Both the position numbers and the translations under genes were made by a program. A stretch of DNA of 64,000 nt from Siphonodentalium dalli (Eukaryota > Mollusca > Scaphopoda > Gadilida > Siphonodentaliidae), in the NCBI GenBank assembly GCA_032622095.1, contig CP136064.1, positions 249,149,827 to 249,213,826 on the forward strand, given 5' to 3'. A model generated the notes under the pieces. The model saw only the letters and a list, made by a program, of their open reading frames with translations, searched no databases and was not told where the DNA came from. Below, piece by piece: positions 1,218 through 22,060 of the stretch; within the stretch, counting starts at the first letter, position 1, and each line of letters starts with the position of its first letter.

Positions 1218-1952
1218 AACTCCCTGGCGATGATTTCTTCTTTGACGTCGAAAGAATCTATGTCGGAAAAGTTAGTGACAATCTGAACTATGTCAACATC
1301 CCAGGCTACTACGTTGGCTATATTCAGAACTTCCAGTTTGATGACATCGATGTCATAAAGAAGCTGCCACCATGGTTTAAGCAAGAGTATGTCGACCCAC
1401 TCCCTCCAATCATATATAACCCAATCACGATCACAAAGAAGAGCGCATATGTTGAGCTTCCAACACTAAGAGTCATTCCAAACATGAGACTGTCATTCAT
1501 GTTCAAAACAAAGGAACCTGATGGTTTGATCATGTTTAATGGTGGGCGGAACAAGGAATTTCTTGGCATTGAATTGACCAATGGTAATCTGAGATTTGCT
1601 GTCAATACTGGAAGCGGAGTGAGAGCAACATCAGTACCAACTGATAAACTCCATGACAACGAGTGGCATCATGTTTCAATCACTGCAGACCAGGATCGGT
1701 ATTATGTCAAAGTGGACGACGTCATTGATCAACTTAACATTCCTTCTGGATCTTCACCCAATTTGCGGGGAAAGCTCTACATTGGTGGCATGCCAAAGAA
1801 CTTGTATACCGTTGACTACATCAGCAATGGTATGGTGTCCCGTAAAGGATTTATGGGCTGCCTAGCATCAGTTGAATTGGTCGGGACAGTTCCAAACCTC
1901 AAAGAGAAAGCCAAGGGCAGCAGTGCTGAAGCAATCTTACAAGGGTGTACAG
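1218..1952 (+). CDS. neurexin-like exon: end of one LamG plus a complete LamG (LNS5-like)
   Basis: The acceptor is tttgcag at 1211-1217 and the donor is gtaagg at 1953. The exon enters and leaves in phase 1, as is usual for extracellular module exons. The first 60 or so residues (GYYVGYIQNFQFDDI) close a preceding LamG. A full LamG follows, with FMFKTKEPDGLIMFNGG, the conserved NEWHHVSI strand and the closing GFMGCLASVEL and LQGC. This matches alpha-neurexin LNS5 better than other LamG proteins. A family A1 MITE begins only about 24 bp after the donor. Confidence 0.9.
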
Positions 1953-4900
1953 GTAAGGAGCTCATATATTCCTATTTAACCCTTTCATGACTGGAGCTTC
2001 CTGAAATTTTGAGAAAACCCTGTGGCAATGTATTCTCTTATATATGCGAGTCGCCCAAAGGGCGCCTCGCATATATAAGAGAATGGATTGGCCTAACAAT
2101 ATTTACCTTGATCTTGTAAGCCAGTGCATTCTCTTATATATGCGAGGCTCCCTATGGGAGACTCGCATATATACCAGAGAATGCACCACACAGGGTTTTT
2201 AATGCTGCACCAGTGCAGCTCCCGTCATGAAAGGGTTAAATTCTCTGATAATTCCTTTAATTATTTTGACTGATTCCTTATTCTGTTTAGGACGGCAGAG
2301 CGATTGAAAATATATATTAATATGCAGATTGTAGAACTAATTGGAATTTGGAATTCCAAGGCTTTTTGCAATATGGAGTATTCAAATCAAGGGTCCCAGC
2401 ATATGGACTACACGAGTATCAGCACTCAGCATACTGAATGGGGACCATTTGGGGACCATAATGGAAATAAATGGTCATCAGACATCAGATACATTGCCAT
2501 ATGCACATGTATTTTACATGTAACTCAACTGTACTACACTGCTCATTATTCACGACATGTAAATGTTTTTCTAAAAGCTATCTCTTGTACTTGTAATTAA
2601 ATTTTATTGTTGTCTGTTACTTGTTATGGTTATCCAAAGACCATTAACCCTTTACCCAACAGAAGGGCCCTGTGCCAATGCATTCTCTTATATATGCGAG
2701 TCGACCATAGGTCGCCTCGCATATATAAGAGAATGCATTGGCTTAACACGTTAAAAATTATAAAATTGTTAAAGAATGTAAGAAAAAATGGTAAAAAGTG
2801 TTTAAAAAAGATTTTTTTTAGGCCAATGCATTCTCTTATATATGCGAGGCGACCTATGGTCGACTCGCATATATAAGAGAATGCATTGGCACAGGGCATA
2901 ACTGTAACTATCACAATGTGGTCAAGGAGCCGGTTCCAATGATATCCATATTTGTATGGTTCTATTGAGACAGACCGAAGATATTTTAGGCTGTTGAAGC
3001 TTTATTTGGCCGGTTTTGGCTGGTTTGTTGGGTTAAAATGTATCTTAACTTAAAACATACATTTTATCTTAAAATGTATCTTATTTTATCTTATTGCTGT
3101 ACTATCATTACTAACGCTGAAATCTGCAGAAAATATGCTTTTAAATGCTTGTAAATCAAATTATAATTTGGGGGGGGGGGGGTTGCCAAATGGTCATTAT
3201 ACGATCATCGCATTGTTTCAAGGTTTGCCCACGTTATTGTCAACTATATGAAACACCAGCTTTGATTGGCTGACTCATTTTGAATTAAGCCTGGAAAACC
3301 CATTCCATTTTTAAGCACAAAGAGGTCAGCAGAACTTACATTAACCTCTTATGGATTTGATGGTAACTGCTCATTTTCAAACTTAGAAGTTAATATTGTC
3401 AAATGATTGCATTTATGTGATGTTCATTAGTATCATGTCTGAGTTTAGTGTGCCTGTCATTTGCAGAATGAGGTCCCCAGAGGGTGAATTTAGTGACGCT
3501 ATCCTGCATAATGGGCCAGCATCACTAAATTCACCATCTGGGGACCTCATTCTGCTTAGGCCTCATCGTCTCTGGAAAGTTTCTTTATTATCAAATTTCT
3601 ATTTATTTTATTCTATTTCTTTTTTAGTTCATTTTCTCTATATCCTCAAATTGGCTGATTACACATTGCATAATCGAGGTTACCAATGGGTGCACATCAC
3701 AATATTCACCATTTGGGAACTTCAATCTGAGTAATTGTCTGCCATAGCAGATGAGGCCATGCAGAATGAGGTCCCCAGAGGGTGATTTTGGTGATGCTAG
3801 CCCGCTATGTGGGATAGCATCACTAAATTTACCCTCTGGGGACCTCATTCTGCAAATGACAGGCACATTATAATCAGGCTTAGTATGCGATTTTGAGAGG
3901 TCTATTTATATTCATATAAATTTTTTTATATATTTCAAAGAAAGATTTAACAACCTTCCAGCTAATTCCTTAAAATGTAGGAATATATTGTATGTTTACT
4001 TCATTTTTGCAGCTATTATCATTCCACCTGTTATTTGCACAACATCTACCTGTGCTAACGGAGGAATATGCATCCCGGTCGGCACCAAGAGCTACAAATG
4101 TGATTGTACATACACCGGATATTCAGGAGACACATGCAACAGTAGTAAGTAATAATTTTAGTTATTTCCTTTTTCTGTAACAGTGGTCTGGCCATATTGT
4201 GTGGAAAAAGTATTGACTTCCTGAGAAACTAGTATCCGCTTAATGTAGCCTGAAAAAAAATCATAGATTTTTGGCAATCTTACATCACGATGGCTAAGTC
4301 AATCTTATGAGCAGGATCCAACTTTTTTCTAGTGGAGCTATCCCCTTTTTTTATTTCGAAAATGTTCGAAACATGCATAATTTTGTCTGAGCTTGTATTC
4401 ATTGTGTTTGTTTGTTGTTTTTTTTTTAAACATGTTAATATGCTACACTTAATGTAGACCAATAGCACTGTGGGGGTATCCTTAGTCCCACTGGGACAGT
4501 CCCACCTCTAGTTTCAATACCAATATCCTCAAGCTGATTAATAACTTCTAACAATTAGGGACCAGCCTAGAGGGCGACTTGAGAGATATTTTCTCCCTAA
4601 ATTGTACCCAAGGGAGAAGTGACTTCTCTCTCATATACCAGTCTGCATATGTCCCAACAGCATATTTAAACTGTATTTTCTTATTATAATGGTGTAATTA
4701 CTCATTATCATAGTTTTATAAAGGGGCTATTGTTGCATAATACTTAGTGGATCATAGCAGGGTATAGTTTTGGTGTAAATTTAACTTGAGCCATTATGAC
4801 TTCTTGAGAACTGTCCACTTCTCCCTAATAATCAAATGGGGAGAAGTGATTTCTCTCAATGCTAGGCTGGTATCTGCTAACAATTAGTTTTGCAATGGGC

Positions 4901-7900
4901 ATGTATAACATTATCTTGTGTAAAACATTTGCCCCCCCCCCACAAAGAACAAAGCTATGTTATAATCTACATATAAGCTATTAGACCTCTGAACAGGCAT
5001 TATACAAATTTTCTGTTCATTAGTATTATGTATATTTCTGCTGATAATTATTTAAATTTATTTACAGTGGAAGTCGGTGTTCGGGTGATGGAGCACGGCC
5101 TGAAGGGATTGATGGTTTACGAGTTTAAAAAACCATACCCTGACTCAAACAACGACACAATTCTGCTGGCATTTAAAACATACGGGGCAAACGGCACAAT
5201 GATTCGAGTCCATAGCCACCTGTTCCATAATCATTTCATTGAGCTAAAATTGGTGAGTTTCTTCATTCATAATCAACTAGACGAGGGCAAATTCACATTT
5301 ATTGTGAATTACACTTAAACTGAGCATAAAATTCTGAAATGATACATCTAATTGGCCTTATTTGGGGACATTAAACATTAAAATACCAATCTTAACCCTT
5401 CGATGACTGGCGCTTACTGAATTTTGTGAAAAACCTTTGCCAATGCATTCTCTTATATATGCGAGCCTCGAATATATAAGAGAATACATTGGCCTAACAA
5501 TATTTACCTTGACGTTGTAAGCCATTGCATTCCCTATGGGAGACTTGCATATATAAGAGAATGCACTGGCACAGGATCTTTAATGCTTCACCAGTGCAGC
5601 TCCCATCATGAAAGGGTTAATATGATATTAAAGACTGTTTCTGTGTTTCTACAGAAACATCAGTAACACATACTCCCAATACAAAGAGAACATTTTGAAA
5701 AATGCATTTTTTTTCTTATGTGCAAAATCCAAATTGAAATGAACGTCAATTTCCACCATTGACAAACCTACATGAAATGTTACCCAACAGCAATGTCGAT
5801 AAACCATCAATCTCAATGCCAATTAATCTAACACCCTAGGTTATCAAATGATGATCATCTGAAGCAATGACAGGCCGTGAATACACACATACTTGCAAAA
5901 AACACAGGTAATACTTTGCATGTGGATTGCTTGAGTATATACCATGGATACATGCGTGAGTATTATACATAAGCTTTGTACATCTCGCCGCTGGAGGAGA
6001 ACAGGTTGGAATGTTAGAAAGATCACGATACATATATTGAAGACACCTGACACCTTCACACACACACTGGACACAAACTGTATATATGCAAGCTGTAGTT
6101 ATCATAAACAAATTTTAATTTGACCTTCTAGGAAAATGGACATGTGGTTGGTGAATACAGAATCAAGGACACCACACGGAGAATAGTGTCTGATATTGGT
6201 GGTCTTAATGATGGTCGGTTACACTTCGTCAAGTTCTACAGAGAACCACTGTCGACAAGACTGGTTGTGAATGGTGTTGCTAAATCCAAGGTGCACTCAG
6301 GTATGTCAAGACCCAAATGTATATATAAAAATAAGCTTTTATCTGGAGGGTTATGTGGAGAATTTTCTATGGCGTCAATACCTAACCAAAACATCCTCCC
6401 GATTTGTTATGCAATTTATATTCCATATGAACCTGTATGAACTGAGAGAGTCGTCTTGCAAGACAAATTTTAAGTTCCGCATTAGTTTGGAAGGAAATGG
6501 TGAGAAAATATTGTGGAGTGTGTACTAGTATATTGTCAGGGAGTAATCTTAACATTTCCTTGAGTTTGTGTACATATAACAGACCAATTTCAGTGCATGC
6601 AGAATTTTAAGCATTATATATTTTAAGAACATTTGAAAATTCAGCTCTCTAAACATAAAGTATCTCATAAACTCATTAACTTTTCAAAAGAAGCATTGTT
6701 GTTTCCCTGCTGTCACAATTGGTCTGCAGAGTGCCTGAGATCCAAACATTAGTGGAGTAGATTAGTGAAAAAAATATTTCACTTTATGACCAAGACATGA
6801 AACATGTCCACATACTTATATTCATTTTAGATATGGAGGCACCTACAAACTTTAAGCCCATTTTTAATCGGCTTGTTTGGGGTGTAAATATTTTTGTTTG
6901 TAAACACCGTCTCCCATAGCAGTACACTGAAAGGGGCATAATCCATTTGTCAACGTTTTTGGTCAAAACAAAATCAATGCAGATGAAATAGTCATTCGAA
7001 AATTCATAATTTAAACCAAAAAGGAAACATGTATATAGATTAAAGTGTAACATGTATGATGTTTTATTATGTGAATTATACATATTATTTGAATGTATGT
7101 AGAAGCTTCAATCTCCGTGACATTCAAGTCAGTGACGAAACAAATTTGCCTTAAATCCAACGACTTTACAACTATATAAATACTCAAAGTGTTTGATATT
7201 GCTGCAATATCCAATGATTTCATATTAATTGATGTGGTTGAAAATAACTAAATACCTGTCCATTTTATTTTAATATGCAACAGCTCTAATATGTAATATG
7301 TGGCCCCATTACCCACAGAGTAAATAAGTTGTGGTGACCTAGAAATGCTCTACAGATAAAGATAATTATTAAAGTAAGCTACAGTGTAAAAATTTGTGTC
7401 TAACATTTTATACTATACCTTGAGCCAATTTTTATTGCACCTTGAACAAAATGAACCTTTTGAATTTCAGCAACCGGAACTGAGTTTGGCGCCATAGAAA
7501 CAATCTATGGTGGAGGATATAGAACTCGTCTTGGTGGCGACTTGATCCACAGCTCATTTAATGGAATCATCGCAGGTAAGCAGCAACTCTAATTAGCCCT
7601 TTCATGATGGGAACATTAAAGATCCTGTGCCAGTGCATTTTCTTGTATATAGGGAGCCACGCATATGTAAGAGAATGCACTGGCTTACAAGGTCAGGGTA
7701 TATTTTGTTAGACCAATGTATTCTTTTATATATGACTTGCATATATAAGAGAATGCATTGGCACAGGTTTTTCAAAAAATTTCAGGAAGCTCCAGTCATG
7801 TAAGGATTAATTAGCTACTTTTAAATATTATTAAATATATTATATTAAACATTAGCCATTTCATACATGAAAGGAAAATACTATGGGAAATGAAGTGAAT

Positions 7901-10900
7901 GTAATAATACAGGATAAGACATGTATTCATATACCTTAACCCTTTCTATACTAAATGGATTCTCCCACTCATTCATAAAAGTATACATCGGAAGGGTCTA
8001 TTAATCATCTGGAGGGATATTCAGGAAAATGAGCAGATGGCAGACAATAGATAGGGCAGAAGGAATCATATTCATTGGTGGGAAATGTTCAGATAATAAG
8101 TTCAACAAATGACCTATGGTCGTTTGTTGAACTTATTATCTGAACTACTCGTCAATGAGTATTTAGTATAGAAAATGTTAACTTTATTATACCCCCCGCA
8201 ACGAAGTTAGGGAAGGGTATACTGGAATCAGCTTGTCCGTCCGTCCATCTGTCGTCCGTCGTGGACACAAATGAGTTTTTCTCAGTCGTTTTTTGATTGA
8301 TTTTCGTGAAACTTGGCACAGACATCAACCACCATGGGAACCTGTGCACCTGCGATTATGACGTCTGTCAGACTTTTTTTGGTGGAGTTATCCCCCCTTT
8401 TTCGACTTAGAAAATTTTCGCAACATGTATAATTTTGTCCGAGCTGTTATTCCTACATTTTTAGGAAAAACTTGGCACAGATATGTAGTACCATGGGAAC
8501 CTGTGCACCTGCGATTATGATGTCTGTCCGACCTTTTTTTGTGGAGTTATTCCCTTTTTCGACTTAAGAACATTTTCGCAACATGCATAATTTTGTCTTT
8601 AGTCCCATTGGGACAGTCACACCTCTAGTTATTTTCTGTTTTTCAGATGCATATTTTGTGCACTCTAAAGGAAGCATACCTGTGATTAAGATGGTCAAGA
8701 CACTTGGAGGTGGTGCTGGCAGTAACTTGTACGATGACGCTACATTCGTTTACCCACCATATGACCTGACTAGGTGAGTTATAAATTTCAATTTTTCCAT
8801 GTATGTGGAGAGCTATTAACCAAGTTATCTCTAATTAGACCAAGTTTATGTTGCCTCCACCAAACGATGGCATCAAGATAGACGCAGCCAAAGATGAAAT
8901 TCTGTTCTGTACATCTCTTATTTGCACTCAAATATATATATATATATATAAGCATATCCATTGATCATGCAATATTGCTAGTGGACATATGCTTTAGATG
9001 ATCGGTTTTCAGCATAATATTTCATTTTCCATATAACTTTCCACACATTTACCATAATACAATGAAAAATATTCATTTATGGAGCCTTTAACCTTTCATG
9101 ATGGGAGCTGCGTTGGTGCAGCATTAAAGATCCTGTGCCAGTGCATTCTCTTATATATGTGTGTCTCACATAGGGTGCCTCGCATATATAAGAGAATGCG
9201 CTGGCTTACAAGTTCAAGGTAAATATTGTTAGGCCAATTTATTATCTTATATATGAGAGGCTCCCTATGGGATACTTGCATATATAAGAGAATGCAATAG
9301 CACAGGATTTTCGCAAAATTCAGAAAGCTCCAGTTATGGAAGGGTTAATGTTGCATTTGTATTGTAGACCAAAAGTCTAAAAGATATCGATCTTAAAGGT
9401 ACTCAATCCGATCAGACAGTCCCCATACCATCAAGATACAACAACAATATTTCGTCAAAATACGCTTTAGTTATCAGAATCGATTTATTGCAACAAAATA
9501 ATACTAACCACTGTCAACTATGGTATCAAATTTCCCAAAACTTGTTATTTATCAACATTTTGTTCAACAAAATATGGCTGTATTATCACTAACGTATCAC
9601 AAAATTTGTCCGTATTACCAATTGATTTTAGAGTTATCCATCTTCATTCGCAAATTTGTCCAAGACCCTCCGTGTTTCTGGGCCACATATTATTACAGTT
9701 CATGAGAAATAACAAACTTCAAAAATCGATATCTGATCACTCTGAGCTTTGATGGGTGGGTTCCTCGACAGGAATCAAATATTTTTTACCCCGAAGCCAA
9801 ATAAATAGTAATTTAGGAGCGTCTGATCGGATTGAGTACCTTTAATCTTCTACTCATCTTTACATTGCAGACCTCCTGTTACTCCAAAACCAGTCCCCAT
9901 ACCACCAGGCCCTGTCCCAGGAGAGGTAGGTGGTGGTGGAGCTGCTTGGGTTCCCAACACTGTTGGTGGTGGAGGTGGTGAAATTCTTGTTGGTGGAGGC
10001 GAAGGTCTCGGTGGAGCTGTAGGAGGTGCTGGCATTGTTGTTCCTGGCGTTGCTCCACCCATAGCTGGGGCTATATCAGGAGCTAGTGCTGGGGCAGGTG
10101 TTCTTCCCCTCACAGGACCTCGAGCTGGCGCAGTCATGGGAACCATTTTGGGAATATTTGCAGCAGCAATTGGGCTGACTTGGGCTTTCTACCGATGCAA
10201 ACCTGGATATTGCGGCTGTATAAAATCTCCTCCAGCACCAGCATCCATGGCTATTTCAACACCAAGAACAGCTGGTACAAACCTATCCTTGGTTCAAGCA
10301 AGTGGTTTTAACGTAGCTGGAGGTGGCGGTAGCGCGAGTGGAGGTGGAGGTGGTATGTCGGCATCTTCTAGTTCTCAGAAGATAACCGCTGGCACTGGTG
10401 GATCTGGAGGTGCACAGTATGACAGCGCTACATTGAGAGCGACCGGAACCTTCTCTAATAAAGGCACAGCTATCGGAACACCGACACCCACACGAACCAC
10501 ATTTGATGCCGCCGGTGGTGGTGGTGGTGGTGGATCATCATCGTATTCTGCTAACTACAGCTCATCTCAGACAACTGTGACACATGGCGTATCTGGTGGA
10601 GGCCATGGTGGCGGTGGCGGTGGCGGTGGCGGAGGCGGAAGCGTCAGCGGATATAGTTCAGGGATGATAACTCCGGGTGCTCAGTCCATGTCGCAGTACA
10701 ACTACGACTCGGGTGCAGATTATGATCATGCAGTAGGAGGAGCCGGTGCAAGCAGTTCTGCGATGAGGGGCGGGTCTGCATCGACAATGAACTCTGCATA
10801 CAATTATCATGTTGCTAATTATAGAACTGTGTATGTGAATAGGCATGGACAGCAGGTTCTAGGACATATTGGTTCAACGAGCGGTTCAATGACACCAGGT

Positions 10901-13900
10901 GGCATGCATGAGGAGGTCAGAGTTGACTGTTGTTTGATATCAGGAGACGGACACTCTGTTATAACAGGATCTAGTCTCGGACCACCACAAATTTGGGACA
11001 TGCAGGTAAGCCTTATGAAATTTTGACCTGATAGTAAAACAATTTTGATAACACGGGCAATCCCTCGCTGTTTTTCATGTCCTTTTTTATCTTTTCACAT
11101 GTGGTCATGGATAATTATGTTGTGTATTTTATCTTAGAGATGATCGCCACTGGCTTATTTATATATTTCTAAATGTTTTCCAATGGAGTTTGGATATTTT
11201 TATATTTAATCTGCCTCTGAAGCCATCATTAGGAGGCAAAATAAGAAATAAAAACCATCTTTTCTCAAATTTCCCAAAAATATTGCCTACAATATTGGCT
11301 TCTATATATTCAATTTTTCAAAATCTAAAAAAAATTACCCACTTCCAAATATTTATAAAACCTTTCTTGATAATGTTATATTGGTATATGACGTGATATG
11401 TATATAATGATATTGTGAGAACATATGGTAAGCCTTGAGTTCTGGCAGATATATCTACTGAAATACACATGTTGTCATGGAGGAGTGTGGAGTACCGTGT
11501 AGCGAAATTGGTTCTATTAAAAATATCCTGGAACCCTGAATACATGTTTAACCCTTTCATGAGGTTCATGATGGGAGCTGCGCTGGTGCAGCATTAAAGA
11601 TCCAGTGCCAGTGCATTCTCTCACATATACGAGTCTCCCATAGGAAGCCTTGCATATATCAGAGATTGCACTGGCTTGCAAGGTCAAGGTAACAATTGTA
11701 AACCAATGTATTCTCTTATATATGCAGGGGTCCCAATGGGAGACTCGATATATAAGAGAATGCATTGGCTCAGGGTTTTGTGCAAAATTCAAGAATCTCC
11801 AGTCATGATTAAAGTGAATGAAAATTGTGCCATTTTTCAAGTAGGGCCCAGCGAATCGATTTGATTCGATGCGATTCGGAATCTTTCATCTGATTTGATT
11901 CGATTCAAAATCAGCTGTCGAATCATTGGCACCAGTTGCATTCTCATTAATTCAACAGATCACATTGCTTTTTCGTGAAGATATATTATGATATAAATAA
12001 CGTTGTCGTTGACCTGATATAACACAATTTCATATATATGTCAAACTTGTGAACCCGATTGCTTTCTGGCTTCAATATGGCTTCTGAACTGATTCATTAT
12101 TGTATAACAGAGACGGCCACAAAGAATGCGCACTTAATTTGTTAGACATGCATTTGATTCATTTAAAGATAATATTTACATTGTATACTGACGAACATTT
12201 ATCATCATTACGAAGTGAGCAAATTGATATTGGTATGGCCTCTGAGTCCTGTATTATCTTCATCTTCCATTATTATGCCTGATGCAATGATTTGATTCGA
12301 GATTCAATGTGATTCGGAATATTTGGCTGATTCAATTCGAGATTCGATTCGAAATGAAAATGCCCGATGCGCAGGGCGCAGGCGCTTTTAACCAAGCCTT
12401 GAAATAGTGTGTCTGTCATTTGCAGAATGAGGTCCCCAGAGGGTGAATTTAGTGATGCTACCCCGCATAGCAGGCTAGCATCACCAAATTCACCCTCTGG
12501 GGACCTCATTCTGCTTACACCTCAGCAGAATGAGGTTCCCAGAGGGTGAATTTGGTGATGCTAGCCCGCTATGTGGGGTAGCATCACTAAATTCACCCTC
12601 TGGGGACCTCATTCTGCAAATGACAGACACACTATTCCAAGACTTGCTTTTAACTAACAATAATTTCTGTATATTCCTCTTGTAGACTGGTGAGCTGGTT
12701 AGGATCATGAAGGGAGAATTAGGAGGTTCGTCACATCTACATCTCGCCTGCAATGATTCTCTACTTGTGGGAACTGTGAACGTTGATCTAGAAATAAACG
12801 AATACTCATCTAGAAAGGGAGTTGTACATAGTCAATTACAGGTCAGTATCCAAAACTATTAAAGAAATGACAAGTAGGCCAGATTGCTTTAGCAGCAAGC
12901 CTGGGTATAGTGTTTCTGACATTTGCAGAATGAGGTCCCCAGAGGGTGAATTTAGTTGATGCTACCTCGCACAGCAGTCTATCATACCAAATTCACCTTC
13001 TGGGGACCTCATTCTGATTAGGCCTCATCTTCAAATAGTCTCAAATTAACATTGGTTTTAGTTACTTTTTCCCTTCTGTTCAGTTCTTTATCCCCTAATT
13101 ACAAAGATAAAATGCATAATCGAGGTGACTAATGGGTGAACATCACCATCTTCAACTGTGGAACTTCAATCTGATCCTAAAGTCTCACATATCAATTGAG
13201 GCCTGAGCCGAATGAGGTTCACATAGGGTGAGTTTGGTTATGTTAGCCTGCTGTGCTGAATAGCATCACTAAATTCACCCTCTGGGAACCTCATTCTGCA
13301 AATGTCGGACACACTATATCCAGGCTTGTTTAGCAGATTCAAGCCTTGAAATAGGGTGTCTGTTATTTGCAGAATGAGGTACCCAGAGGGTGAATTTAGT
13401 GATGCTACCCCACATAGCGGGCTAGCACCACCAAATTCACCCTCTGGGGACCTCATTCTGCTTACACCTCAGCAGAATGAGGTTACCAGAGGGTGAGTTT
13501 GGTGATGCTAGCCCGTTATGCGGGGTAGCATCACTAAATTCACCCTCTGGGAACCTCATTCTGCAAATGACAGACACACTATTTCAAGGCTTGAGTGACC
13601 CTGAGGATATAAATTTTGTATTGACTGAAACATTCTCATTCGAGTAATAGTTCTCTATAGTATTTTATACAGTCTGTGTAGTAAGTTAGATAACTCTATA
13701 GCAATATCAAGACTGAATTAGTCACTAAAATCTAAGAAATCAGTGGATGAGATTACCAAGGATTCTATTTCACCGGAACACCATTTTATAGCTGTAAAAT
13801 TTATATCAAACAAGCAGATTAATATGCTTTAACAGAGATTAAAGTGGTGCTTCCACAACAATATGACTGGGACCGATTTTCAAGCTTGATCTGAGTTGAG

Positions 13901-16900
13901 GGACAGCTCAATATGCCATTCTGATTGATACATGGCCATTTCGATAAGAAGTGAGAAATTGTTTGTGCCCATTGAAGCAAGCACAAGTTATTACACAAAT
14001 GTTGTGTACAGTATGTGTTTTTCTTGTAGGAGTCCAGGTTGTGGTGAAAAGTCATATTGGACGAGACACGACTTTTCACCACAACCTGGACCAGTAGCGG
14101 CAGTACAAGAAAAAAACATACTGTACACAAAATTGTATGACATTTTTATTATCCATTTGTATGTTTGTCCAGATTTTGGGAATAAAACTTTTGTGGTTAT
14201 TTTTGGTATTTGTCGACACTTGATTCTCTATAAAAGCCGGTATTTGATCATCAGAAAGCATGATTTGGAACAGTAAACACAGAAGTGAAAAGAAAACTGC
14301 GGAAGTGAAACGTCTGCTAAATCCACAAGAGTATTGCGCGCGCATCACATTCATTTGGCAATAGAGTTACTTTGTGACGTCACAGAGTCCCGATAAAAAA
14401 GTCATTGGACTCGATTGAGTTCACTATGACTTTCGGGAGTCCAATATGACTTTTTCACGGATTATCATGTGATGGCTTGTGCCCAATCAGAAATAGTGTT
14501 AGTTAAGGGATGGATAATAAATATATATAGGTGACTCTGGATACCCTGATCCATGGATCCCAATTCAGCTGTATTAGGTCCCAGAGAAAAGAAATAAACT
14601 AGGCATTTGAGAATGACACTGATACAGTAATGACCTAAATAATCGACTCCTTAACCACAGCAGAATTATGGGTAACTTATCAGGATTTAGTCAGAAATAT
14701 GGCTTGTTGCCATTCATCAGAAAGCTCTCGCTGTGGTTAAGGAGTTGATTATTTATGGCATTACTGTACATGGTGGGGAATCACATGGTTTCGAGGTTGG
14801 TGAGTACCACGCATTCAAAATGGCCGAGGCAAATTCAAACGCACACAAACATAAAATATGAGGAACTGACACAAAACATAGAATTTTTACTGTTACAAGC
14901 CTATGCTAGTTTATTTTTAAGTTGATACCTTATTTGTTCGGAAATACTCAGTAGTTTTCTATAACATTCTGACCAAAGTTGCCAGTCGCATGTTTGTGGA
15001 ATATACCAGTCCATACATCTAGGAGAATCCTTCGACTGACAACTTTGGTCAAAATGTTAGAGAGTTTGGACACAAATGAGGTATCAGCTTGTGTGAAAAA
15101 TAGTATAGTTATGCTCATAGCTGCCAAAATACTATGTAATATATTATTATCCTAGTTTATTACCTTTTCTTTGTTTCTGGTCGCGTTTGAGATCGCCTTG
15201 GCTATTTTGAATGCGTGATACTCATCAACTCAAAACATCGTGATTCCCCACCTTATGATAATGATAGAATCTTCTTGAATAACCCATTAGATATCTGTGC
15301 ATTTAAATTTTGGTCAGTTTCAATTGACTGACGATTCTTTGAAACATTGATAAAAAATAGTGAATATAATAGAGATGTGATGTTTCTGTCTGCATTTATT
15401 GTGAAAGTATTAATTCCAATACATTATACATGGCTATTTTCAGATCTGGGACTTCGGTTCAGGAATGCCTTTAGATATGAAGGATATGCAGTACTGTTCA
15501 GCTTTATCTGTCATGTCTGATGGAGACAAGGTTGTGTTTGGACGATCCGACAAATTTGGAAGTTCCACAAGTATAATTGTATGGGATCTCATGGGTAATC
15601 AGGCCATTAAGACAATGAACTATGATGCTCCTGTCGGCAACAATGACTATATCAGCTATCTAAATCTGTCCAAAAACAACCGCTTTATCGTGGCGGGCTT
15701 CTCGAACTCAGCAGATAATTACGCGGAATTTGTTGTGTTCGATATGTCTCTAACAAGCAACAATGTAGTGGAGCCAAGCTTGTTGAGATTGGATGCTAAT
15801 CCGGAATGTACTGCCGTCTTACCTCGCGATGAAGCCGTCACCGGTCTTAGAAATGGAGATCTCGTCATCTGGAGTCTGAGAACCGGACAGCCGAGTCGAC
15901 AGCTTCTGTCAGGAAACGGAAGACACGCCCATACACAGGAGGTGAAGGCTGTTGAATTGTCCACTGATGGCAAATATCTGGTATCAGCATCAGCTGACGG
16001 AACACTTAAGGTGTGGGATATGCAGTCCGAAAGAGAACTACACGTCCTCCAAGGTCACATGGATGAGGTGAGTTTGAAACTCCGACAGTCTCAACATTAC
16101 CCAACAAAGAAAAAATTACATTCTCAGTAAATTAGAGATGCACGAGGCCTATTTCCAATTCTTTGGATAATGTTTATCATTTCAATTCTCTGTTCTTCTA
16201 GCTATCTTTCGTTTTGATTATTAACACTTCCATGACTGTTGCTTCCTGAAATTTTGCGAAAGCCCATAGGGCACCTCTCATATATAAGAGAATGCATTGG
16301 CCTAAAACTATTTACCTTGACCTTGTAAGCCAGTGCATTTCTTATATATGCAAGATTCCCTATGGGAGACTCACATATATAAGAGAATGCACTGGCACAG
16401 TATCTTTAATATTGCACCATCATGAAAAGGTTAAGTGGTCTTTCACTTTAACAAATAAATGGAAGTCCTAAGAAAAATGAAAATACCTTGATTTGAAATA
16501 CACATAAATCGTGTAATTAAATTGCATTTCTCATTTTAAACTTCATATGCCACCAATGATCTGCATGTTTGACCATATTGGGAATTACTTATCGTGAAAC
16601 ATTCTATATTATTTAGCTTTATAATGCATTAAAAGTGCTGCATTAGAAATATTTTTTATTCAAATGTTAGAAAATTTAACCATGTGCCTGACAAAATTTA
16701 TACTATTATAACTTAGTATTATAATTATTGAACATTCCCTATAAATGGAAATATGGCTTGTTGCCATTCATCGGAAAGCTTTCACTGAGAGCTTTCCGAT
16801 GAATGGCAACAAGCCATATTTCCGACTAAATCCTGAAAAATGTCCCATAATTCTGCTGTGGTTAAGGAGTCGATTATTTAGGGCATTACTGTATATGTCA

Positions 16901-18240
16901 TATTTATTCACAATTAAAGGTGAAGGGAATGTATGTTTTTGAACATAGTTCAATGGTCTTGAAACGTTGAAAATGGCCATCTGGGAGATTTTTGCAGGAG
17001 GGACAGCCTCCAATTTGGGACCACATTTCCTGTTCACCAACTGATTTATTCTATATATCACCTGCAATGGGCAATCACCTGTTAAACGCGACCGCGACTA
17101 TCTAATTTTCGGCTCAAAACACAAACTTCACCCGAGTTGAGAAAATACCACCATTTATCAAAGAGAAAGAAGCAGACACTTCATTTAAACTAAGAAAAAA
17201 TACTCAGAATTCCACTGGATACAGCTGGATACAGCTGGATATGCGCGAAACCAAAAGTACAAAATCGGAGTAAACTACAAAATGGATTTGTTTTACGGTT
17301 TAATAACCCCCAAAAGAAATGGACACTTTCCACCATTTATTAATAAATTTTAAGAAGCAGAAATTTTGTTTAAGATCAGTTAAGATAAGTAAAAATGAAC
17401 CAGAGTTACACAGGTTACAATTGAACATGCATGAAACTGAAAGTACAAAATGGACCCGTCTTTACCTGCAAACGAAATTGACTCATTCCGTTCGCATGCT
17501 TTGTGACTTAGTGGTTATTTAACAACTTTGTGATTATGTGTCAGTCTGGAGGCCATTAGCAAATAGGTCTATTGAAATAAAGTAGATTCATGATTCCATA
17601 TTTATTTTGACAAACGCTTGAACTGCCTCAGAACAATCAATTAATATATTGAGGGATGCCCAAATTGAAAAAGCCATTAGCAGCCGATGCGTGTACTTAT
17701 TTTATCTGTTGACATGCATGGCCCTATTAATTGTCACATGTGGGAGAAATGGGTGGTTATCCATATATTAGAGGTTTTCGCTATGGCAATCTGGGAGTCT
17801 CACGGACCCTCCTTGAAAGTTAACAGCTCTGTTCTCCATTGTAATTAGCATAACAACAGGTGCTGTAAAGCTTAATTATTAAAATATTTCTGCAGACGCC
17901 TTGTCACCTAGCAACCATAGGCTCTTTCCCATTAATGAATATGTGTGGATACCTCTATTATGAAAACTAATGATATTCTCATTCGTTATAGGTGTGGTGT
18001 TGCTCCATCGCCCCAGATGATGACATCGTAGTATCTGGATCACGGGACGGCACGATCAGAGTATGGCGATTGAAGAGTGGCCAAGAGATGTGCCACTTTA
18101 ACACCGGTGTTGATGTATTCATGATCAAGATGAGCAACGATAAGAAGACCATTGTTGCCCTCGGTGACAAATTCGGTGCTAGGAAACTCATAATGCTACA
18201 GGTTGTCCGTTCTAAAATAAAGCGACAAATCAGCTCATGA
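1218..18240 (+). CDS. neurexin-like transmembrane protein with cytoplasmic WD40 repeats (partial gene, 10 exons)
   Basis: Exons are 1218-1952, 4013-4144, 5068-5252, 6132-6300, 7471-7575, 8647-8773, 9871-11005, 12686-12841, 15444-16067 and 17992-18240. All have AG/GT borders and compatible phases, and together give about 1,204 residues plus a stop. The N-terminus lies outside the window. The order is end of a LamG, LamG, EGF, LamG, Pro/Gly-rich stalk, one membrane helix (about residue 570-592), Gly/Ser-rich region and about eight WD40-type repeats. LamG-EGF-LamG before a single helix corresponds to LNS5-EGF3-LNS6 of alpha-neurexins, which are synaptic adhesion receptors. Classical neurexins end in a short tail with a PDZ ligand. 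Here the tail is about 610 residues of linker and propeller ending KRQISS, with no PDZ ligand. The ectodomain is assigned with high confidence; the role of the propeller is unknown. Confidence 0.85.
1976..2239 (+). mobile_element. family A1 double-hairpin MITE (TTAA-flanked)
   Basis: The ends are TTAACCCTTTCATGA and its inverse. Inside are two near-perfect 60-70 nt hairpins built on TGCATTCTCTTATATATG, joined by a spacer of about 35 bp. TTAA duplication and CCCTTT ends are the style of piggyBac-type elements. No transposase is present. The copy lies in the intron directly after the 1218-1952 exon. Confidence 0.85.
2644..3036 (+). mobile_element. family A2 double-hairpin MITE
   Basis: The left end is TTAACCCTTTACCCAACA and the right end TTTGTTGGGTTAA, the latter about 8 bp shorter than in other copies. 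The same two-hairpin cassette as in A1 lies at about 2,670-2,897, bracketed by CCCTGTGCC and GGCACAGGG. The right arm carries a unique block (tatggttctattgagac) shared with the copies at 19,941 and 21,119. A poly-G run lies downstream at about 3,171-3,182. Confidence 0.8.
3434..3878 (+). mobile_element. family B double-hairpin MITE, long form
   Basis: Two hairpins are built on GCAGAATGAGGTCCCC and GGGTGAATTTAGTGA. They flank a centre containing 'ggcctcatcgtctctgg' and 'caatattcaccatttggg', the long-form middle shared with copies at 12,896, 40,672 and 47,265. The flanks attagtat and cttagtat agree at 7 of 8 positions, consistent with the 8-bp duplication proven for sister copies. Confidence 0.75.
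4013..4144 (+). CDS. neurexin-like exon: EGF-like domain
   Basis: The acceptor is ttttgcag and the donor gtaagt at 4145. The exon is phase 1 on both sides and adds 44 residues. Six cysteines have EGF spacing: VICTTSTCANGGICIP, then YKCDCTYTGYSGDTCN. It sits between the two LamG units exactly as EGF3 does in alpha-neurexins. Confidence 0.9.
4270..4512 (+). repeat. fragment of the dispersed repeat seen at 8,187-8,630
   Basis: Blocks such as gtggagctatcccc, acatgcataattttgtc and 'ttagtccca.tgggacagtc..acctctag' recur in the same order in the longer copy at 8,187-8,630. It lies in the intron after the EGF exon. Confidence 0.6.
4559..4872 (+). mobile_element. family K inverted-repeat element
   Basis: The ends are ACCAGCCTAGAGGGCGACTT and an inverse containing CTAGGCTGGT. 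Inner inverted blocks read gggagaagtgacttctctc and gggagaagtgatttctctc. A second copy spans about 39,006-39,772, where it is split by an A4 element. There is no coding capacity. Confidence 0.5.
5068..5252 (+). CDS. neurexin-like exon: first part of the membrane-proximal LamG (LNS6-like)
   Basis: The acceptor is tttacag and the donor gtgagt at 5253; phase 1 in, phase 0 out. It contributes about 62 residues with EHGLKGLMVYEFKKP, DTILLAFKTYG and ending FIELKL. These are the early beta strands of a LamG fold. The reading frame is still open past the donor, but the sequence after FIELKL is intronic. Confidence 0.85.
5392..5620 (+). mobile_element. family A1 double-hairpin MITE, partly deleted
   Basis: The element is flanked by TTAA, with CTTCGATGACTGG at the left and CATGAAAGGG at the right. 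Both hairpins have lost part of an arm or loop, so this copy is older than that at 1,976. It lies in the intron between LamG exons. Confidence 0.75.
6132..6300 (+). CDS. neurexin-like exon: middle of the membrane-proximal LamG
   Basis: The acceptor is cttctag and the donor gtatgt at 6301; phase 0 in, phase 1 out, 56 codons. Residues include ENGHVVGEYRIKD, SDIGGLNDGRLHFVKFYRE and RLVVNG. This is the central LamG strand pair, with NDGRLHFVKFYR replacing the neurexin NDGKYHVVRFTR motif. Confidence 0.9.
6301..7470 (+). other. intron, nothing recognised
   Basis: This is an AT-rich intron of about 1.2 kb. I saw no duplicated block, terminal inverted repeat or exon-like frame with splice sites in it. 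Confidence 0.5.
7471..7575 (+). CDS. neurexin-like exon: late LamG strands
   Basis: The acceptor is gaatttcag and the donor gtaagc; phase 1 in and out, 35 codons. It encodes GTEFGAIETIYGGGYRTR, then SFNGIIA, the penultimate LamG strands that precede the stalk. A family A1 MITE starts less than 20 bp after the donor. Confidence 0.85.
7593..7810 (+). mobile_element. family A1 MITE, degraded
   Basis: It begins ttagccctttcatgatgg and ends catgtaaggattaa. Both hairpin remnants, with gtaagagaatgcactgg and ataagagaatgcattgg, are still recognisable. Confidence 0.65.
7940..8177 (+). mobile_element. family D MITE, complete (TTAA-flanked)
   Basis: TTAA at 7,936-7,939 and 8,178-8,181 flanks ends CCCTTTCTATACTAAAT and its inverse. 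A 46-nt internal palindrome (TTCAACAAATGACCTATG and its inverse) lies near the right end. Related copies are at 505-662, 38,161-38,943 and 49,062-49,315. The ends again resemble the piggyBac-type TTAA-CCC pattern. Confidence 0.75.
8187..8630 (+). repeat. dispersed 'accccccgcaacgaag' / TCCGTCCGTC repeat
   Basis: The repeat starts ttataccccccgcaacgaag and contains gtccgtccgtccatctgtcg. A block (gtgcacctgcgattatga plus the following 'ttttcgactta') occurs twice about 150 bp apart. Repeats of this kind are widespread in molluscs and other marine invertebrates. It ends just before the 8,647 exon. Confidence 0.65.
8647..8773 (+). CDS. neurexin-like exon: end of LamG and start of stalk
   Basis: The acceptor is tttttcag and the donor gtgagt at 8774; phase 1 in, phase 2 out. 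It encodes DAYFVHSKGSIPVIKMVKTL and ends YPPYDLT with a split Arg codon. It closes the last LamG and leads into the Pro-rich stalk of the next exon. Confidence 0.8.
9088..9348 (+). mobile_element. family A1 double-hairpin MITE
   Basis: The TTAA-flanked copy has CCTTTCATGATGGGAGCTG at the left and TTATGGAAGGG at the right. Its orientation is opposite to the copy at 1,976, because the end carrying the 'gcagcattaaagatcc' block comes first. Both hairpins are present with several loop and arm substitutions. Confidence 0.8.
9397..9841 (+). mobile_element. family G MITE (TTAA-AGGTACTCAATCC ends)
   Basis: TTAA at 9,393-9,396 and 9,842-9,845 flanks inverted ends AGGTACTCAATCCGATCAGA. The 445-bp body is non-coding. 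An inverted second copy lies at 61,284-61,742. TTAA duplication with AGG ends is the pattern of the large THAP-bearing element at 23,443. The right end is only 29 bp from the exon start at 9,871. Confidence 0.75.
9871..11005 (+). CDS. neurexin-like exon: stalk, membrane helix, Gly-rich region and first WD repeat
   Basis: The acceptor is acattgcag and the donor gtaagc at 11006; phase 2 in, phase 0 out, 378 codons. A Pro-rich start (PPVTPKPVPIPPGPVPG) runs into a Gly/Ala-rich stalk. One hydrophobic helix (GTILGIFAAAIGLTWAF, about 10,136-10,186) is followed by basic, Cys-bearing residues YRCKPGYCGC, as expected on the cytoplasmic side. A long Gly/Ser/Thr region follows with runs of up to 11 glycines. 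The exon ends with VDCCLISGDGHSVITGS and PQIWDMQ, a WD repeat. Because helix and WD repeat share one open frame, the fusion does not depend on exon chaining. Confidence 0.9.
11006..11547 (+). other. intron, nothing recognised
   Basis: AT-rich intronic sequence precedes a MITE cluster. I saw no repeat family or coding signal. Confidence 0.45.
11548..11812 (+). mobile_element. family A1 double-hairpin MITE
   Basis: The copy has TTAA ends, a duplicated 'catgaggttcatgatggg' at the left and a right end reduced to cagtcatgattaa. Both hairpins are present, with extra substitutions in the arms. Confidence 0.75.
11849..12366 (+). repeat. family H repeat rich in GATTCGATTCGA
   Basis: It begins GTAGGGCCCAGCGAATCG and has GATTCGATTCGA-like runs at both ends (about 11,856-11,930 and 12,284-12,352). 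The same end appears inverted at about 35,032-35,050. Fragments also lie at 21,983-22,060 and 34,952-35,050. It may be a hAT-type non-autonomous element; the duplication was not established. Confidence 0.5.
12393..12646 (+). mobile_element. family B double-hairpin MITE, short form, with clear 8-bp duplication
   Basis: CTTTTAAC occurs at 12,385-12,392 and again at 12,647-12,654. Ends are CAAGCCTTGAAATAG and an inverse with one change. Two hairpins of about 92 nt face each other across ttacacctcag. An 8-bp duplication suggests a hAT-type transposase supplied in trans. The right end is 40 bp from the exon at 12,686. Confidence 0.9.
12686..12841 (+). CDS. neurexin-like exon: WD repeat 2
   Basis: The acceptor is ctcttgtag and the donor gtcagt; phase 0 on both sides, 52 codons. 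It begins TGELVRIMKGELGG, the usual sequence after a WD dipeptide, and continues HLACNDSLLVGTVNVD. It ends QLQ, so the next exon starts with IWDF and completes the blade. Confidence 0.85.
12896..13328 (+). mobile_element. family B MITE, long form, 8-bp duplication TTTAGCAG
   Basis: TTTAGCAG flanks both sides (12,888-12,895 and 13,329-13,336). Ends are CAAGCCTGGGTATAGTG and the inverse of CAAGCCTGGATATAGTG. The centre includes aacattggttttagttac, which here preserves the uninterrupted version of the site occupied by the 5.76-kb element at 23,443. Confidence 0.9.
13340..13593 (+). mobile_element. family B MITE, short form
   Basis: A complete 254-bp short form starts 11 bp after the previous copy. 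Its flanks agcagatt and agtgaccc do not match, so this copy may have lost its original flank by recombination with its neighbour. Confidence 0.8.
14002..14134. repeat. imperfect palindrome with arms of about 55 nt
   Basis: The arms run from tgtgtacagtatgtg to its inverse, and include agtccaggttgtggtgaa and its inverse. The left arm contains a splice-like ttttcttgtag. There is no open frame across the loop. It lies in the intron between 12,841 and 15,444. Confidence 0.65.
14392..14459. repeat. short inverted repeat
   Basis: The arms are aaaaaagtcattggactc and its inverse with one change, around a short loop. It may be the end of an undefined foldback element. Confidence 0.45.
14625..14766 (+). 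mobile_element. family C MITE, half palindrome (TA-flanked)
   Basis: TA flanks both ends, which read CAGTAATGACCTAAATAATC and its inverse. The TA duplication and CAGT start suggest Tc1/mariner. Compared with the 213-bp copy at 55,638, about a third of the central palindrome is missing. Confidence 0.75.
14772..15252 (+). mobile_element. foldback/MITE with GGTGGGGAATCAC ends
   Basis: The left end is GGTGGGGAATCACATGG and the right end reads CGTGATTCCCCACC. Inverted blocks continue inward ('gcattcaaaatggccgagg' against 'gccttggctattttgaatgc'), and inner pairs include ctgaccaaagttgccagtcg and its approximate inverse. No coding frame was seen and the duplication was not resolved. It directly abuts the family C copy. 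Confidence 0.65.
15444..16067 (+). CDS. neurexin-like exon: WD repeats 2-6
   Basis: The acceptor is ttttcag and the donor gtgagt at 16068; phase 0 on both sides, 208 codons. Blade ends are visible as QIWDF, IIVWDL, FVVFDM, LVIWSLRTG and LKVWDMQSE. The clearest repeat is EVKAVELSTDGKYLVSASAD, with GHMDE opening the next. Several blades lack the GH...WD pairing, a divergence also seen in NACHT-WD type propellers. Confidence 0.9.
16221..16434 (+). mobile_element. family A1 MITE
   Basis: TTAA ends, a left end reading CACTTCCATGACTG and a right end ATCATGAAAAGG. The first hairpin has lost its left arm; the second is nearly complete. Confidence 0.75.
16748..16891 (+). mobile_element. family C MITE, left end lost
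   Basis: The central palindrome (ggaaatatggcttgttgcc and its inverse) and the right end GGGCATTACTG followed by TA are intact. The left terminal block is replaced by 'acattccctataaat'. Confidence 0.7.
16892..17991 (+). other. intron, nothing recognised
   Basis: This is the last intron of the neurexin-like gene. A short duplication (tggatacagc, three times near 17,216-17,240) is visible and nothing else stands out. Confidence 0.5.
17992..18240 (+). CDS. neurexin-like terminal exon: last WD repeats and stop
   Basis: The acceptor is cgttatag and the reading is phase 0. It begins VWCCSIAPDDDIVVSGSRD and GTIRVWRLKSGQ, one of the best WD repeats, then a divergent closing blade (FMIKMSNDKKTIVALGD and RKLIMLQV). 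The protein ends KRQISS with TGA at 18,238-18,240. There is no PDZ-binding C-terminus. If the donor-like gttgtc at 18,202 were used, a further exon would be needed, but none was found downstream. Confidence 0.85.
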   Translation: MWCCSIAPDDDIVVSGSRDGTIRVWRLKSGQEMCHFNTGVDVFMIKMSNDKKTIVALGDKFGARKLIMLQVVRSKIKRQISS

Positions 18241-18347
18241 GGAATAGTTAGTTAAATTGTTCGAATTGGTTTTAAATTATACGAGTTTTAAATGTGCAAT
18301 TTCACCTGAATGACCAGAGTTGTGAATTTTTTACAGATTCGAATGCT

Positions 18348-18353
18348 AATAAA
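18348..18353 (+). promoter_or_regulatory. candidate polyadenylation signal AATAAA
   Basis: An AATAAA lies 108 bp after the neurexin-like stop codon in AT-rich sequence, the first such hexamer downstream. It is plausible as the 3' processing signal. Confidence 0.45.
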
Positions 18354-18802
18354 TATTTATAAAATTATGTTGATATGCCATAATATTTTCTGGATGTAAA
18401 TATTTCTGTGATTCTAAATATTCCAACTCTTCTGTGAGAATTAATGAAGAACTATAGTTAAATTGTAACTTAACCACTGTAATAGTGCTGAAAGCAAAAT
18501 GATGATTATATGTCATTCTTTTGGCGAAATAATAACAAGAAACTTCGGAGTTCTATTGCTTTGGAAAAAATGCCTACAAGGTTCACTGGCAACTCAAATG
18601 TTTAGGGGGTGTTGATCTAATTCTAAGTTATGATTGGAGACAAAATTGTTTAATTTTGGCCTGATGTTACAGTGTAAAATATCAATTCTCCTTAAAATTG
18701 CTTAAATACAGTAGAGTCCTGTTGGGAATGATCTAATTACCAATGACTATACTGCACAAATATCATAAATATAAAGGAAGTACACCCAGGCAAGAGGTTA
18801 AC

Positions 18803-19068
18803 TTAACCATTCCATGACTGGAGCTTCCTGAAATTTTGTGAAAGCCCTGTACCAATGCATTCTCTTATATATGCGAGTCTCCAATAGGGAGCCTTGCATA
18901 TATAAGAGAATGCATTGGGCCTAACACTATTTACCCTTGACTTAGTAAGCCCAGTGCATTCTCTTATATATGCGAGGCTCCCCTATGGGAGACTCACATA
19001 TATAAGAGATGCACTGGCACATGATCTTTAATGCTGCACCAGCGCAGCTCCCATCATGAAAGTGTTAA
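18803..19068 (+). mobile_element. family A1 double-hairpin MITE
   Basis: TTAA-flanked, starting CCATTCCATGACTGGAGC and ending CATCATGAAAGTG. Both hairpins are complete, with inner pairs CTCC/GGAG and CTCCCC/GGGAG. Confidence 0.8.
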
Positions 19069-19387
19069 CTTAATCTAAGTTACTGTGGTTTGCCAAGAAT
19101 GAAAAGTAAAACTTTCCCGTTACCAATGAGATGATTTGTAACTGGATTTAGAACTTGGATCATGAGTTGGATTTCATTTTCAACTACATCAACATTGAAC
19201 AATGTAGAATTCTCACAGTTAAAAGAGTTTGAATATCAGAGAAATTTTGTGTCTAGCATATTTTATTGAATATCCCAGATATTCATTATTTATGAATCTC
19301 AGCGACTGGAAATATTTTTTCTATAAGAACTTACACATTGAGATCTCGGCCAACGCTGCTGTATGTATGATCATAAGAGCTGAAGTA

Positions 19388-19599
19388 CTTTAATTCCCTA
19401 AATATCGACTCCTTAACCTCAGCAGAATTATGGGTAATTTTTCAGGATTTAGTTGGAAATATGGCTTGTTGCCATTCATCGGAAAGGTCTCACTAAGAGC
19501 TTTCCGATGAATGGCAACAAGCCATATTTCCGACTAAATCCTGAAAAATTACCCATAATTCTGCTGTGGTTAAGAAGTCCATTATTTAGGGAATTACTG
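19388..19599 (+). mobile_element. family C MITE, nearly complete
   Basis: TA-flanked. The left end ctttaattccctaaat is changed from the CAGTAAT norm; the right end is GAATTACTG. A long palindrome of about 90-nt arms is centred near 19,493. Confidence 0.75.
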
Positions 19600-19940
19600 T
19601 AATAAGTGAGCATATTCCCTCTAAAGACCATGTTAATTTCATATTATAGGTCTCTTCGCTTATAGATGATAATGATTTTCCGCTTGATTTTTTTTTTACT
19701 TTCAACGAGACATAAGTGGATTATGTTAATTTTGTCTGGTGGATGTGTATGTGTAACACATGCTTTTTGGTAACAAATCATGTGTATTTGCAACTTTTTG
19801 CTGCATTTATCATGAATGTTGAGTGTATTGTTAGCTTTTATTAAACTAAAACATGTTTCTAATGAAACAAGATAAAAGTAAATTTAGGTTAGTCTTCAAA
19901 AGATATTCTGCATTTATAAGTTCTCTGCTTAAGTTGGTTC

Positions 19941-20284
19941 TTACCTTTACCCAACAAAACAGCCAAAAACGCCCAAATAAAGCTTCAACAGCCTAAAATA
20001 TCTTCGGTCTGTCTCAATAGAACCATACAAATATGGATATCATTGGAACCGGCTCCTTGACCACATTGTGATAGTTACAGTTATGCCCTGTGCCAATGCA
20101 TTCTCTTATATATGCGAGTCGACCATAGGTCACCTCGCATATATAAGAGAATGCATTGGCCTAAAAAATGCCTAAAATTGGCCTAAAAAATGCATTCTCT
20201 TATATATGCAAGGCGACCTATGGTCGACTCGCATATATAAGAGAATGCATTGGCACAGGGCCCTTCTGTTGGGTAAAGGGTTAA
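19941..20284 (-). mobile_element. family A2 double-hairpin MITE (inverse of 2,644)
   Basis: It begins TTACCTTTACCCAACA and ends TGTTGGGTAAAGGGTTAA. The unique block with ggttctattgagac, seen here as its inverse, comes first, so orientation is opposite to the copy at 2,644. The second hairpin is shorter because its spacer is reduced. Confidence 0.8.
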
Positions 20285-21118
20285 CAGATTTTTGAAATCA
20301 AGGCAGAACTTAATTCTTTTACCATCAGAGTTTCAACATATTTGAAGCATAGTAACTGGTATATTCGGGTGTGTTACAACTTCATTGAATGAGATGTACG
20401 TTTAATATAGATAGACTTTATTCATCTTAGTATACACTACCCACTAATCAAACCATGATTAAATTTTTCTAAATATTAAAATGCAATTTTTCTGAAATTT
20501 CATGAAACACTCATAAAAAAAACCTCTTTGTTTACCAATTTAAAAGTAAGTTTATGTGTATACCAGGTTAATATAATTTCTCAAAAAGAGCTACTGAAAT
20601 GTCTGTGTATACATTCTTGGCAAGACTGTCATTTGAAAAAGTTAGAAATCTGCATGCTTCCTATAAAAGTTTCCTATATTAATGCACAATACCATACTAC
20701 AGCACTGCACATTCACCTAACCTACACAAAAAAAAAATATGTTAACCAGTTATGTTAACTACACCCTATTAAGCAACACATAACATTTCTTTTATTGTGG
20801 CGTGGTTATCAATTTCATTTGCTACATTACCCACTCTCAGTCAGCTGGCAGAGAACTCTCATCAAATTTTACTCTTGTTGAGTTTCAATTCTCAGCCAAT
20901 AAAAAAAAAAGAAGACGATATATTAGCAAATATTGTGTTCCACAATAATCAGAAGTCGGCAACAAGGATAAAAAGACAGTAGACTTGCTATTAAAAAAAA
21001 TATAAAGGTCACTAAAGTTCAGACTGTAATAAACAATATATTTTGCTACTAAATGAAAGATATATTTCTTAGTGTTACTTTACATCAATAACAAATAAAA
21101 TGAAAATTATATTGATCC
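20285..21118. other. intergenic, nothing recognised
   Basis: AT-rich sequence between two A2 copies. Short open frames are present but have no recognisable composition or splice context. Confidence 0.45.
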
Positions 21119-21982: not shown

Positions 21983-22060
21983 GCCCAGTGAATCAGGGGT
22001 TTACATTTCGAATTGAATCTCAAATCGAATCAGGTAAAAGATTAAAAATCACATTGAATC
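21983..22060. repeat. family H fragment
   Basis: It begins agggcccagtgaatcag and continues with cgaattgaatctcaaatcg, diverged from the H ends at 11,849. Confidence 0.4.

What the first reader, a model, noticed from the sequence alone, without database searches (positions are those of the whole stretch)
9871..18240. Neurexin ectodomain joined through one membrane helix to a cytoplasmic WD40 propeller
The exon at 9,871-11,005 holds, in one open frame, the stalk, the helix GTILGIFAAAIGLTWAF, a Gly/Ser-rich linker and the first WD repeat ending IWDMQ. Three further exons with matching phase-0 borders add about seven more repeats and a stop. Upstream exons are LNS5-EGF3-LNS6-like. Known neurexins have a short tail with a PDZ ligand; this tail is about 610 residues with none. 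I know of no described receptor with this architecture, though I cannot search. The inference is an adhesion receptor that presents a propeller scaffold inside the cell.
Basis: partly seen in the sequence, partly recalled or inferred. Interest (0 to 1): 0.85.

Follow-up and report, generated by a model that had tools for sequence, protein, structure and literature searches.

The report
Second neurexin with WD40 cytoplasmic tail
This animal gene encodes a second, altered neurexin whose usual short inner tail is replaced by a large WD40 propeller; this design was already noted in molluscs and brachiopods in 2024, and what it does is not known from anything seen here.

Summary
The window's ten exons splice with GT-AG sites into one frame: LNS5-EGF3-LNS6, stalk, membrane helix, a 238-residue Gly/Ser-rich linker, and a WD40 region ending at 18,240. 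Helix and first WD repeat share one exon. Extended upstream in the same genome, the model has 17 exons and 2,060 residues, from a signal peptide to the stop, in alpha-neurexin order. The tail is 614 residues and ends QISS, without a PDZ ligand.

The genome also holds a canonical neurexin on another contig, with a short tail ending KEWYV. Five borders, from entry into LNS6 to the helix exon, have the same phases in both genes, so I read them as paralogues. The WD40 copy lacks two LNS6 calcium ligands that the canonical copy keeps (reference sequence and ligand positions recalled).

The novelty claim fails. PMC11405698 (2024) states that in molluscs and brachiopods one neurexin-1 paralogue is canonical and the other has 'a unique C-terminal WD40 domain'. 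This is a new member of that type, with exon structure and likely topology worked out. There is no transcript evidence, and function is inferred.

The parts
1218..1952 (+). exon A: end of LNS4 and LNS5 (enters phase 1, leaves phase 1)
   Evidence: Laminin_G_2
4013..4144 (+). exon B: EGF3
   Evidence: (PF00008 E 0.00012, 22.7 bits, cut-off 21.5)
5068..5252 (+). exon C: LNS6 first part; enters phase 1, leaves phase 0, as in the C6 neurexin
6132..6300 (+). exon D: LNS6 second part; leaves phase 1 as in C6
7471..7575 (+). exon E: LNS6 third part; leaves phase 1 as in C6
8647..8773 (+). exon F: end of LNS6; leaves phase 2, matching the acceptor phase of the C6 terminal exon
9871..11005 (+). exon G: Pro/Gly stalk, membrane helix, Gly/Ser linker, first WD repeat; leaves phase 0
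10139..10189 (+). membrane helix GTILGIFAAAIGLTWAF (residues 1430-1446 of the 2,060-residue model)
   Evidence: highest hydropathy window apart from the signal peptide
10190..10903 (+). 238-residue Gly/Ser-rich linker, inferred cytoplasmic (58 Gly, 39 Ser)
12686..12841 (+). exon H: WD40 region, second repeat (by eye)
15444..16067 (+). exon I: WD40 region, about four blades
17992..18240 (+). exon J: last WD40 repeats, C terminus QISS and stop
18348..18353 (+). AATAAA, candidate polyadenylation signal

Best explanation
This is the WD40-tailed paralogue of neurexin-1, a type reported in molluscs and brachiopods. Shown from the DNA: an alpha-neurexin-like gene with six LNS domains; a stalk-and-helix exon that continues in frame into a WD40 region; and a separate canonical neurexin in the same genome. 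Inferred origin: an alpha-neurexin gene duplicated, and in one copy the terminal exon was joined to WD40 sequence, so that the short tail with its PDZ ligand was lost. Inferred function: a single-pass surface receptor whose ectodomain binds partners without the LNS6 calcium-dependent neuroligin mode, and whose propeller, on a long flexible tether, docks cytosolic proteins in place of PDZ adaptors such as Mint and CASK.
For: One open frame over 17 exons, 2,060 residues, from signal peptide to stop. Best solved relative neurexin-1-alpha. Six LNS places on C4, plus strand, all over the family's cut-off, two of them only just (24.3 and 23.9 bits against 22.9). Canonical neurexin on C6 with RDEGSY in its tail and the end KEWYV. 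Same phases in both genes at five borders: entry to LNS6 1, then 0, 1, 1, 2. LNS6 identity to NRXN1: C6 71 of 144, C4 34 of 149; Asp and Asn at two recalled ligand positions kept in C6, His and Gly in C4. WD40 fold. Helix and first WD repeat in one exon. The same kind of paralogue pair in print for molluscs and brachiopods.
Against: No RNA evidence: splicing is inferred from sites, frame and homology, and some acceptors were picked because they keep the frame (for one LNS4 exon, the first of ten AGs tried in order that did so). A second hydrophobic window in the stalk (residue 1390, 1.62 against 1.92 for the helix) is read as Pro/Gly stalk, but a second membrane pass is not excluded. A soluble WD40 product from an internal start cannot be excluded (in-frame ATG codons follow the helix in exon G). 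The ligand and propeller partners are unknown. The calcium-ligand comparison rests on letters and positions recalled from memory and on one alignment at 23% identity, with a gap next to the Asn position. The published text that I read does not say that the WD40 form keeps a membrane helix, and I did not see its Fig. 3.
Confidence: 0.85

Rival explanations
1. Two genes read as one: a neurexin ending in or near the Gly-rich exon, followed by a separate WD40 gene with its own promoter.
For: No transcript data here. In-frame ATG codons exist between helix and WD repeats. Retaining the intron after exon G would end the protein six residues later (the frame 9836-11026 ends IWDMQVSLMKF).
Against: Stalk, helix and first WD repeat lie in one exon without a stop, where 0 of 2,000 shuffles stay open. 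The borders after exon G are all phase 0. One motif scan for a short PDZ-type tail in the three + frames of 8,641-24,000 found none (it would miss a motif split by an intron). The joined form is reported in two phyla.
Confidence: 0.06
2. Both products exist: the joined receptor, plus a soluble WD40 or a truncated isoform made by internal initiation, alternative splicing or cleavage near the membrane, so that the propeller acts partly away from the membrane.
For: In-frame ATG codons after the helix. Predicted soluble and alternative 3' forms of neurexin I in honeybee (PMC2570956, abstract and passages). [quoted passage not shown]
Against: Nothing in the sequence requires it. The one motif scan found no alternative end with a PDZ ligand.
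Confidence: 0.3
3. An assembly join or a decaying gene: the neurexin part and the WD40 part are not a working unit.
For: The copy has diverged strongly (LNS6 34 of 149 identical to NRXN1), and Pfam at E 0.01 lists no EGF match over EGF1 and EGF2.
Against: An open frame over 17 exons. The fusion point is inside one exon. The same joined type is reported in other species.
Confidence: 0.02

Closest known systems
WD40-tailed neurexin-1 paralogue of molluscs and brachiopods (PMC11405698, Sci Rep 2024; section 6, part 1 of 2 read)
   Same: Second neurexin-1 gene beside a canonical one; C-terminal WD40 domain; a long run of LamG domains near the N terminus (here Pfam lists four LamG stretches and no EGF in the first 916 residues).
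   Different: The Lingula form also has nine predicted FN3 domains; no FN3 match was listed for the parts of this model scanned with Pfam. The text I read does not discuss a membrane helix in the WD40 form, exon structure or calcium ligands.
Canonical alpha-neurexin (NRXN1-alpha; here the C6 gene)
   Same: Six LNS domains, EGF positions, stalk, one helix; phases of five borders near the 3' end.
   Different: Short tail with PDZ ligand (KEWYV in C6) against a 614-residue linker and WD40; two recalled LNS6 calcium ligands missing in the C4 copy.
Caspr/Neurexin IV, Axotactin and BAM-2 (neurexin superfamily)
   Same: LamG and EGF domains.
   Different: The four C. elegans members have short cytoplasmic tails (PMC12414531, passages). 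Its figure legend names discoidin, fibrinogen-like and BPTI domains among superfamily members; none of these was listed for this model.

Membership tests
alpha-neurexin (neurexin-1 type) | Signal peptide and six LNS domains in order | tested here: met
   (signal peptide by hydropathy only; LNS2 and LNS6 only just over the Pfam cut-off)
alpha-neurexin (neurexin-1 type) | EGF after LNS1, LNS3 and LNS5 | tested here: inconclusive
   EGF3 found by Pfam. EGF1 and EGF2 are Cys-rich stretches at the expected places with no Pfam match at E 0.01.
alpha-neurexin (neurexin-1 type) | Same gene structure as a canonical neurexin | tested here: met
   Five border phases match the C6 gene. In the alignment two inner LNS6 borders fall at the same column and one about four residues away in a gapped stretch. 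Borders upstream of LNS6 were not compared.
alpha-neurexin (neurexin-1 type) | Short tail with PDZ ligand KE[W/Y]YV | tested here: not met
   C terminus QISS; no such end by motif in the + frames of 8,641-24,000
alpha-neurexin (neurexin-1 type) | Calcium ligands of LNS6 for neuroligin binding | tested here: not met
   Asp to His and Asn to Gly in the alignment; reference letters and ligand positions recalled
WD40-tailed neurexin paralogue (PMC11405698) | Neurexin LamG/EGF ectodomain and C-terminal WD40 in one predicted protein, beside a canonical paralogue | tested here: met
WD40-tailed neurexin paralogue (PMC11405698) | Groups with the published forms in a tree | not testable with these tools
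   No collection of animal proteins or genomes other than the window's own was available
WD40 propeller | Four-strand blades closing into a seven- or eight-bladed ring | tested here: inconclusive
   Exon I alone folds as about four blades; ring closure not modelled; Pfam scores only two repeats on their own

The most novel reading that the evidence does not exclude
After duplication, one lophotrochozoan neurexin changed at both ends: it gave up calcium-dependent neuroligin binding outside and PDZ coupling inside, and became a receptor that carries its own propeller scaffold. This would be a distinct, possibly non-synaptic, adhesion pathway kept in several phyla.
Probability: 0.4. Interest if true: 0.65.

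Novelty: new member of a known kind. Interest (0 to 1): 0.42.

Why it matters
A major synaptic adhesion molecule has, in part of the animal kingdom, a sister form with an entirely different inner end. Because a canonical gene sits in the same genome, the pair is a natural comparison of what the neurexin ectodomain does with and without PDZ coupling. In the papers seen here the WD40 form rests on a few sentences and a figure legend in one paper.

Tried and rejected
Axotactin as a known WD40-bearing neurexin: a lead from memory; the figure legend in PMC12414531 names BPTI, and the passages shown name no WD40. A source gene for the WD40 part: the best other match listed in the genome is C1:6939919-6940149, 43% over 77 residues, so no source is named. 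Kinship with a named WD40 family: the whole WD region passes the cut-offs of PF00400 and also of TEP1_C (43.8 against 32), WDR75 (48.8 against 45) and DCAF4 (33.2 against 27) among the 25 of 56 families shown; exon J alone does not pass TEP1_C (25.4), and NWD2_C is weak (15.5 against 33). I take these as cross-matches among propellers. Relatives in viral contigs: none. Lineage by mollusc haemocyanin: no match, and no control rang, so uninformative. NCBIfam gave only sub-threshold propeller matches. PMC11405698 was already in the first listing, but its passages were read only. The single-sequence fold of exon I is of moderate confidence, and four of its five models are poor.

Full report
What is there. 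The region was read directly and exons were placed by open frames and splice sites. Ten exons in the window join with GT-AG borders into one 1,204-residue frame that enters from upstream and stops at 18,240. The strongest single fact is that stalk, helix, linker and first WD repeat share one exon of 1,135 bases, open in one frame only (18 and 19 stops in the other two; 0 of 2,000 dinucleotide shuffles open). The Gly runs use mixed GGT/GGA/GGC codons, though some stretches are near-simple repeats.

Whole gene. The window lies in a 2.23 Gb genome at C4:249149827-249213826. A Laminin_G_2 search listed six places on this strand of C4 between 249037520 and 249156179, all over the cut-off, two of them only just. 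With fetched DNA and a locus, seven more exons join in frame: an ATG at C4:249037376 with a hydrophobic leader, LNS1 with a Cys-rich EGF1, LNS2 in three exons, LNS3-EGF2 preceded by a repeated TRYPP stretch, and LNS4 in two exons. Borders were picked among candidate sites by frame and homology. The model has 17 exons, about 131 kb from ATG to stop and 2,060 residues. The helix is at residues 1430-1446, the tail is 614 residues, the linker 238 residues (41% Gly+Ser), and the WD40 part starts near residue 1685. There are 3 Lys/Arg in the 20 residues after the helix and 1 in the 20 before, which fits a cytoplasmic tail. Apart from the leader, the next most hydrophobic window is in the stalk (1.62 against 1.92); I read it as stalk because of its prolines, but it is not far below the helix.

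What the parts are. The ectodomain's best solved relative is neurexin-1-alpha (E 4.6e-97 for the window part; E 2.4e-125 for the whole ectodomain, where the best stretch covers 574-1278 and LNS1 aligns separately). The WD40 region is well supported as a fold class, has no clear family of origin, and its first 243 residues are divergent: Pfam lists only weak propeller matches there. Exon I has one match in the genome at E 0.001. With the whole WD region as query 93 matches were listed up to E 10; the first four are this gene's own exons and the best other is 43% over 77 residues. About four blades were modelled from exon I alone. I count about eight by eye over exons G-J.

The paralogue. The genome also holds a canonical neurexin on C6 whose last exon reads stalk, helix, a tail with RDEGSY, and the end KEWYV. 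Entry into LNS6 is phase 1 in both genes, and the next four borders are phases 0, 1, 1 and 2 in both. The C6 phases up to the third inner border were checked by script (the last of these uses a weak GTGATT donor); the phase 2 is that of the acceptor of the C6 terminal exon, since the C6 exon before it was not fetched. So exon G looks like the counterpart of a canonical neurexin's terminal exon, carried on into WD40 sequence. The Asp and Asn that I recall as calcium ligands are kept in C6 and are His and Gly in C4. This weighs against calcium-dependent neuroligin binding by the C4 protein, subject to that recalled reference and to alignment at low identity.

Print. Eight of the ten literature searches looked for neurexin or LamG with WD40 or for neurexin paralogues; three of their lists were cut (20 of 32, 20 of 46, 20 of 241). 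[quoted passage not shown] That wording fits this gene, where Pfam lists four LamG stretches and no EGF in the first 916 residues. Its sequences came, with named exceptions from transcriptomes, from database searches checked by reciprocal BLAST (methods passage), so some may be predicted models. I did not see its figure. In the listings and passages that I saw there was no functional study of this form; that covers only this library and what the lists showed.

How it probably works (inferred). The ectodomain reaches into the extracellular space as in neurexins but probably without the LNS6 calcium mode. The helix anchors it. The flexible linker, with three Cys, presents a propeller that could bind peptides of cytosolic partners. 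This would replace, rather than add to, PDZ coupling. None of these binding steps is shown.

Lineage. The WD40 paralogue beside a canonical KEWYV neurexin fits a mollusc or brachiopod, but this is an inference from one paper, and a haemocyanin search was uninformative.

Noticed in passing
window 12390-12649 and 13339-13594: Two near-perfect palindromic elements (arms 126 and 124 nt, 95% and 93% complementary) built from the same GCAGAATGAGGT...CCCTCTGGGG unit, inside introns G/H and H/I; similar units seen by eye near 3466-3555, 3760-3860 and 12925-13020. Perhaps a family of foldback or miniature inverted-repeat elements.
   Followed up: partly
window 25582-28642 (-): Non-LTR retrotransposon remains: reverse transcriptase (RVT_1 E 4.4e-22) and weak endonuclease matches in one frame, with two adjoining shorter frames.
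   Followed up: partly
window 42664-43017 (-): An EF-hand frame on the opposite strand (EF-hand_7 E 8.9e-08), perhaps of a neighbouring gene. Frames at 45518-45895 and 51129-51485 (-) recall EFHB, from memory only; the latter had no Pfam match, the former was not scanned.
   Followed up: no
G000:C4:249144548-249145517: About eleven tandem TR(Y/F/L)PP units between LNS2 and LNS3 of this gene, a Pro-rich spacer (extensin model below cut-off) that I do not recall from canonical neurexins.
   Followed up: no
window near 2030-2240, 5440-5620, 9127-9311, 16260-16440 and elsewhere: Recurrent short inverted repeats around TGCATTCTCTTATATATGCGAG (seen by eye; one pair of arms at 9127-9311).
   Followed up: no
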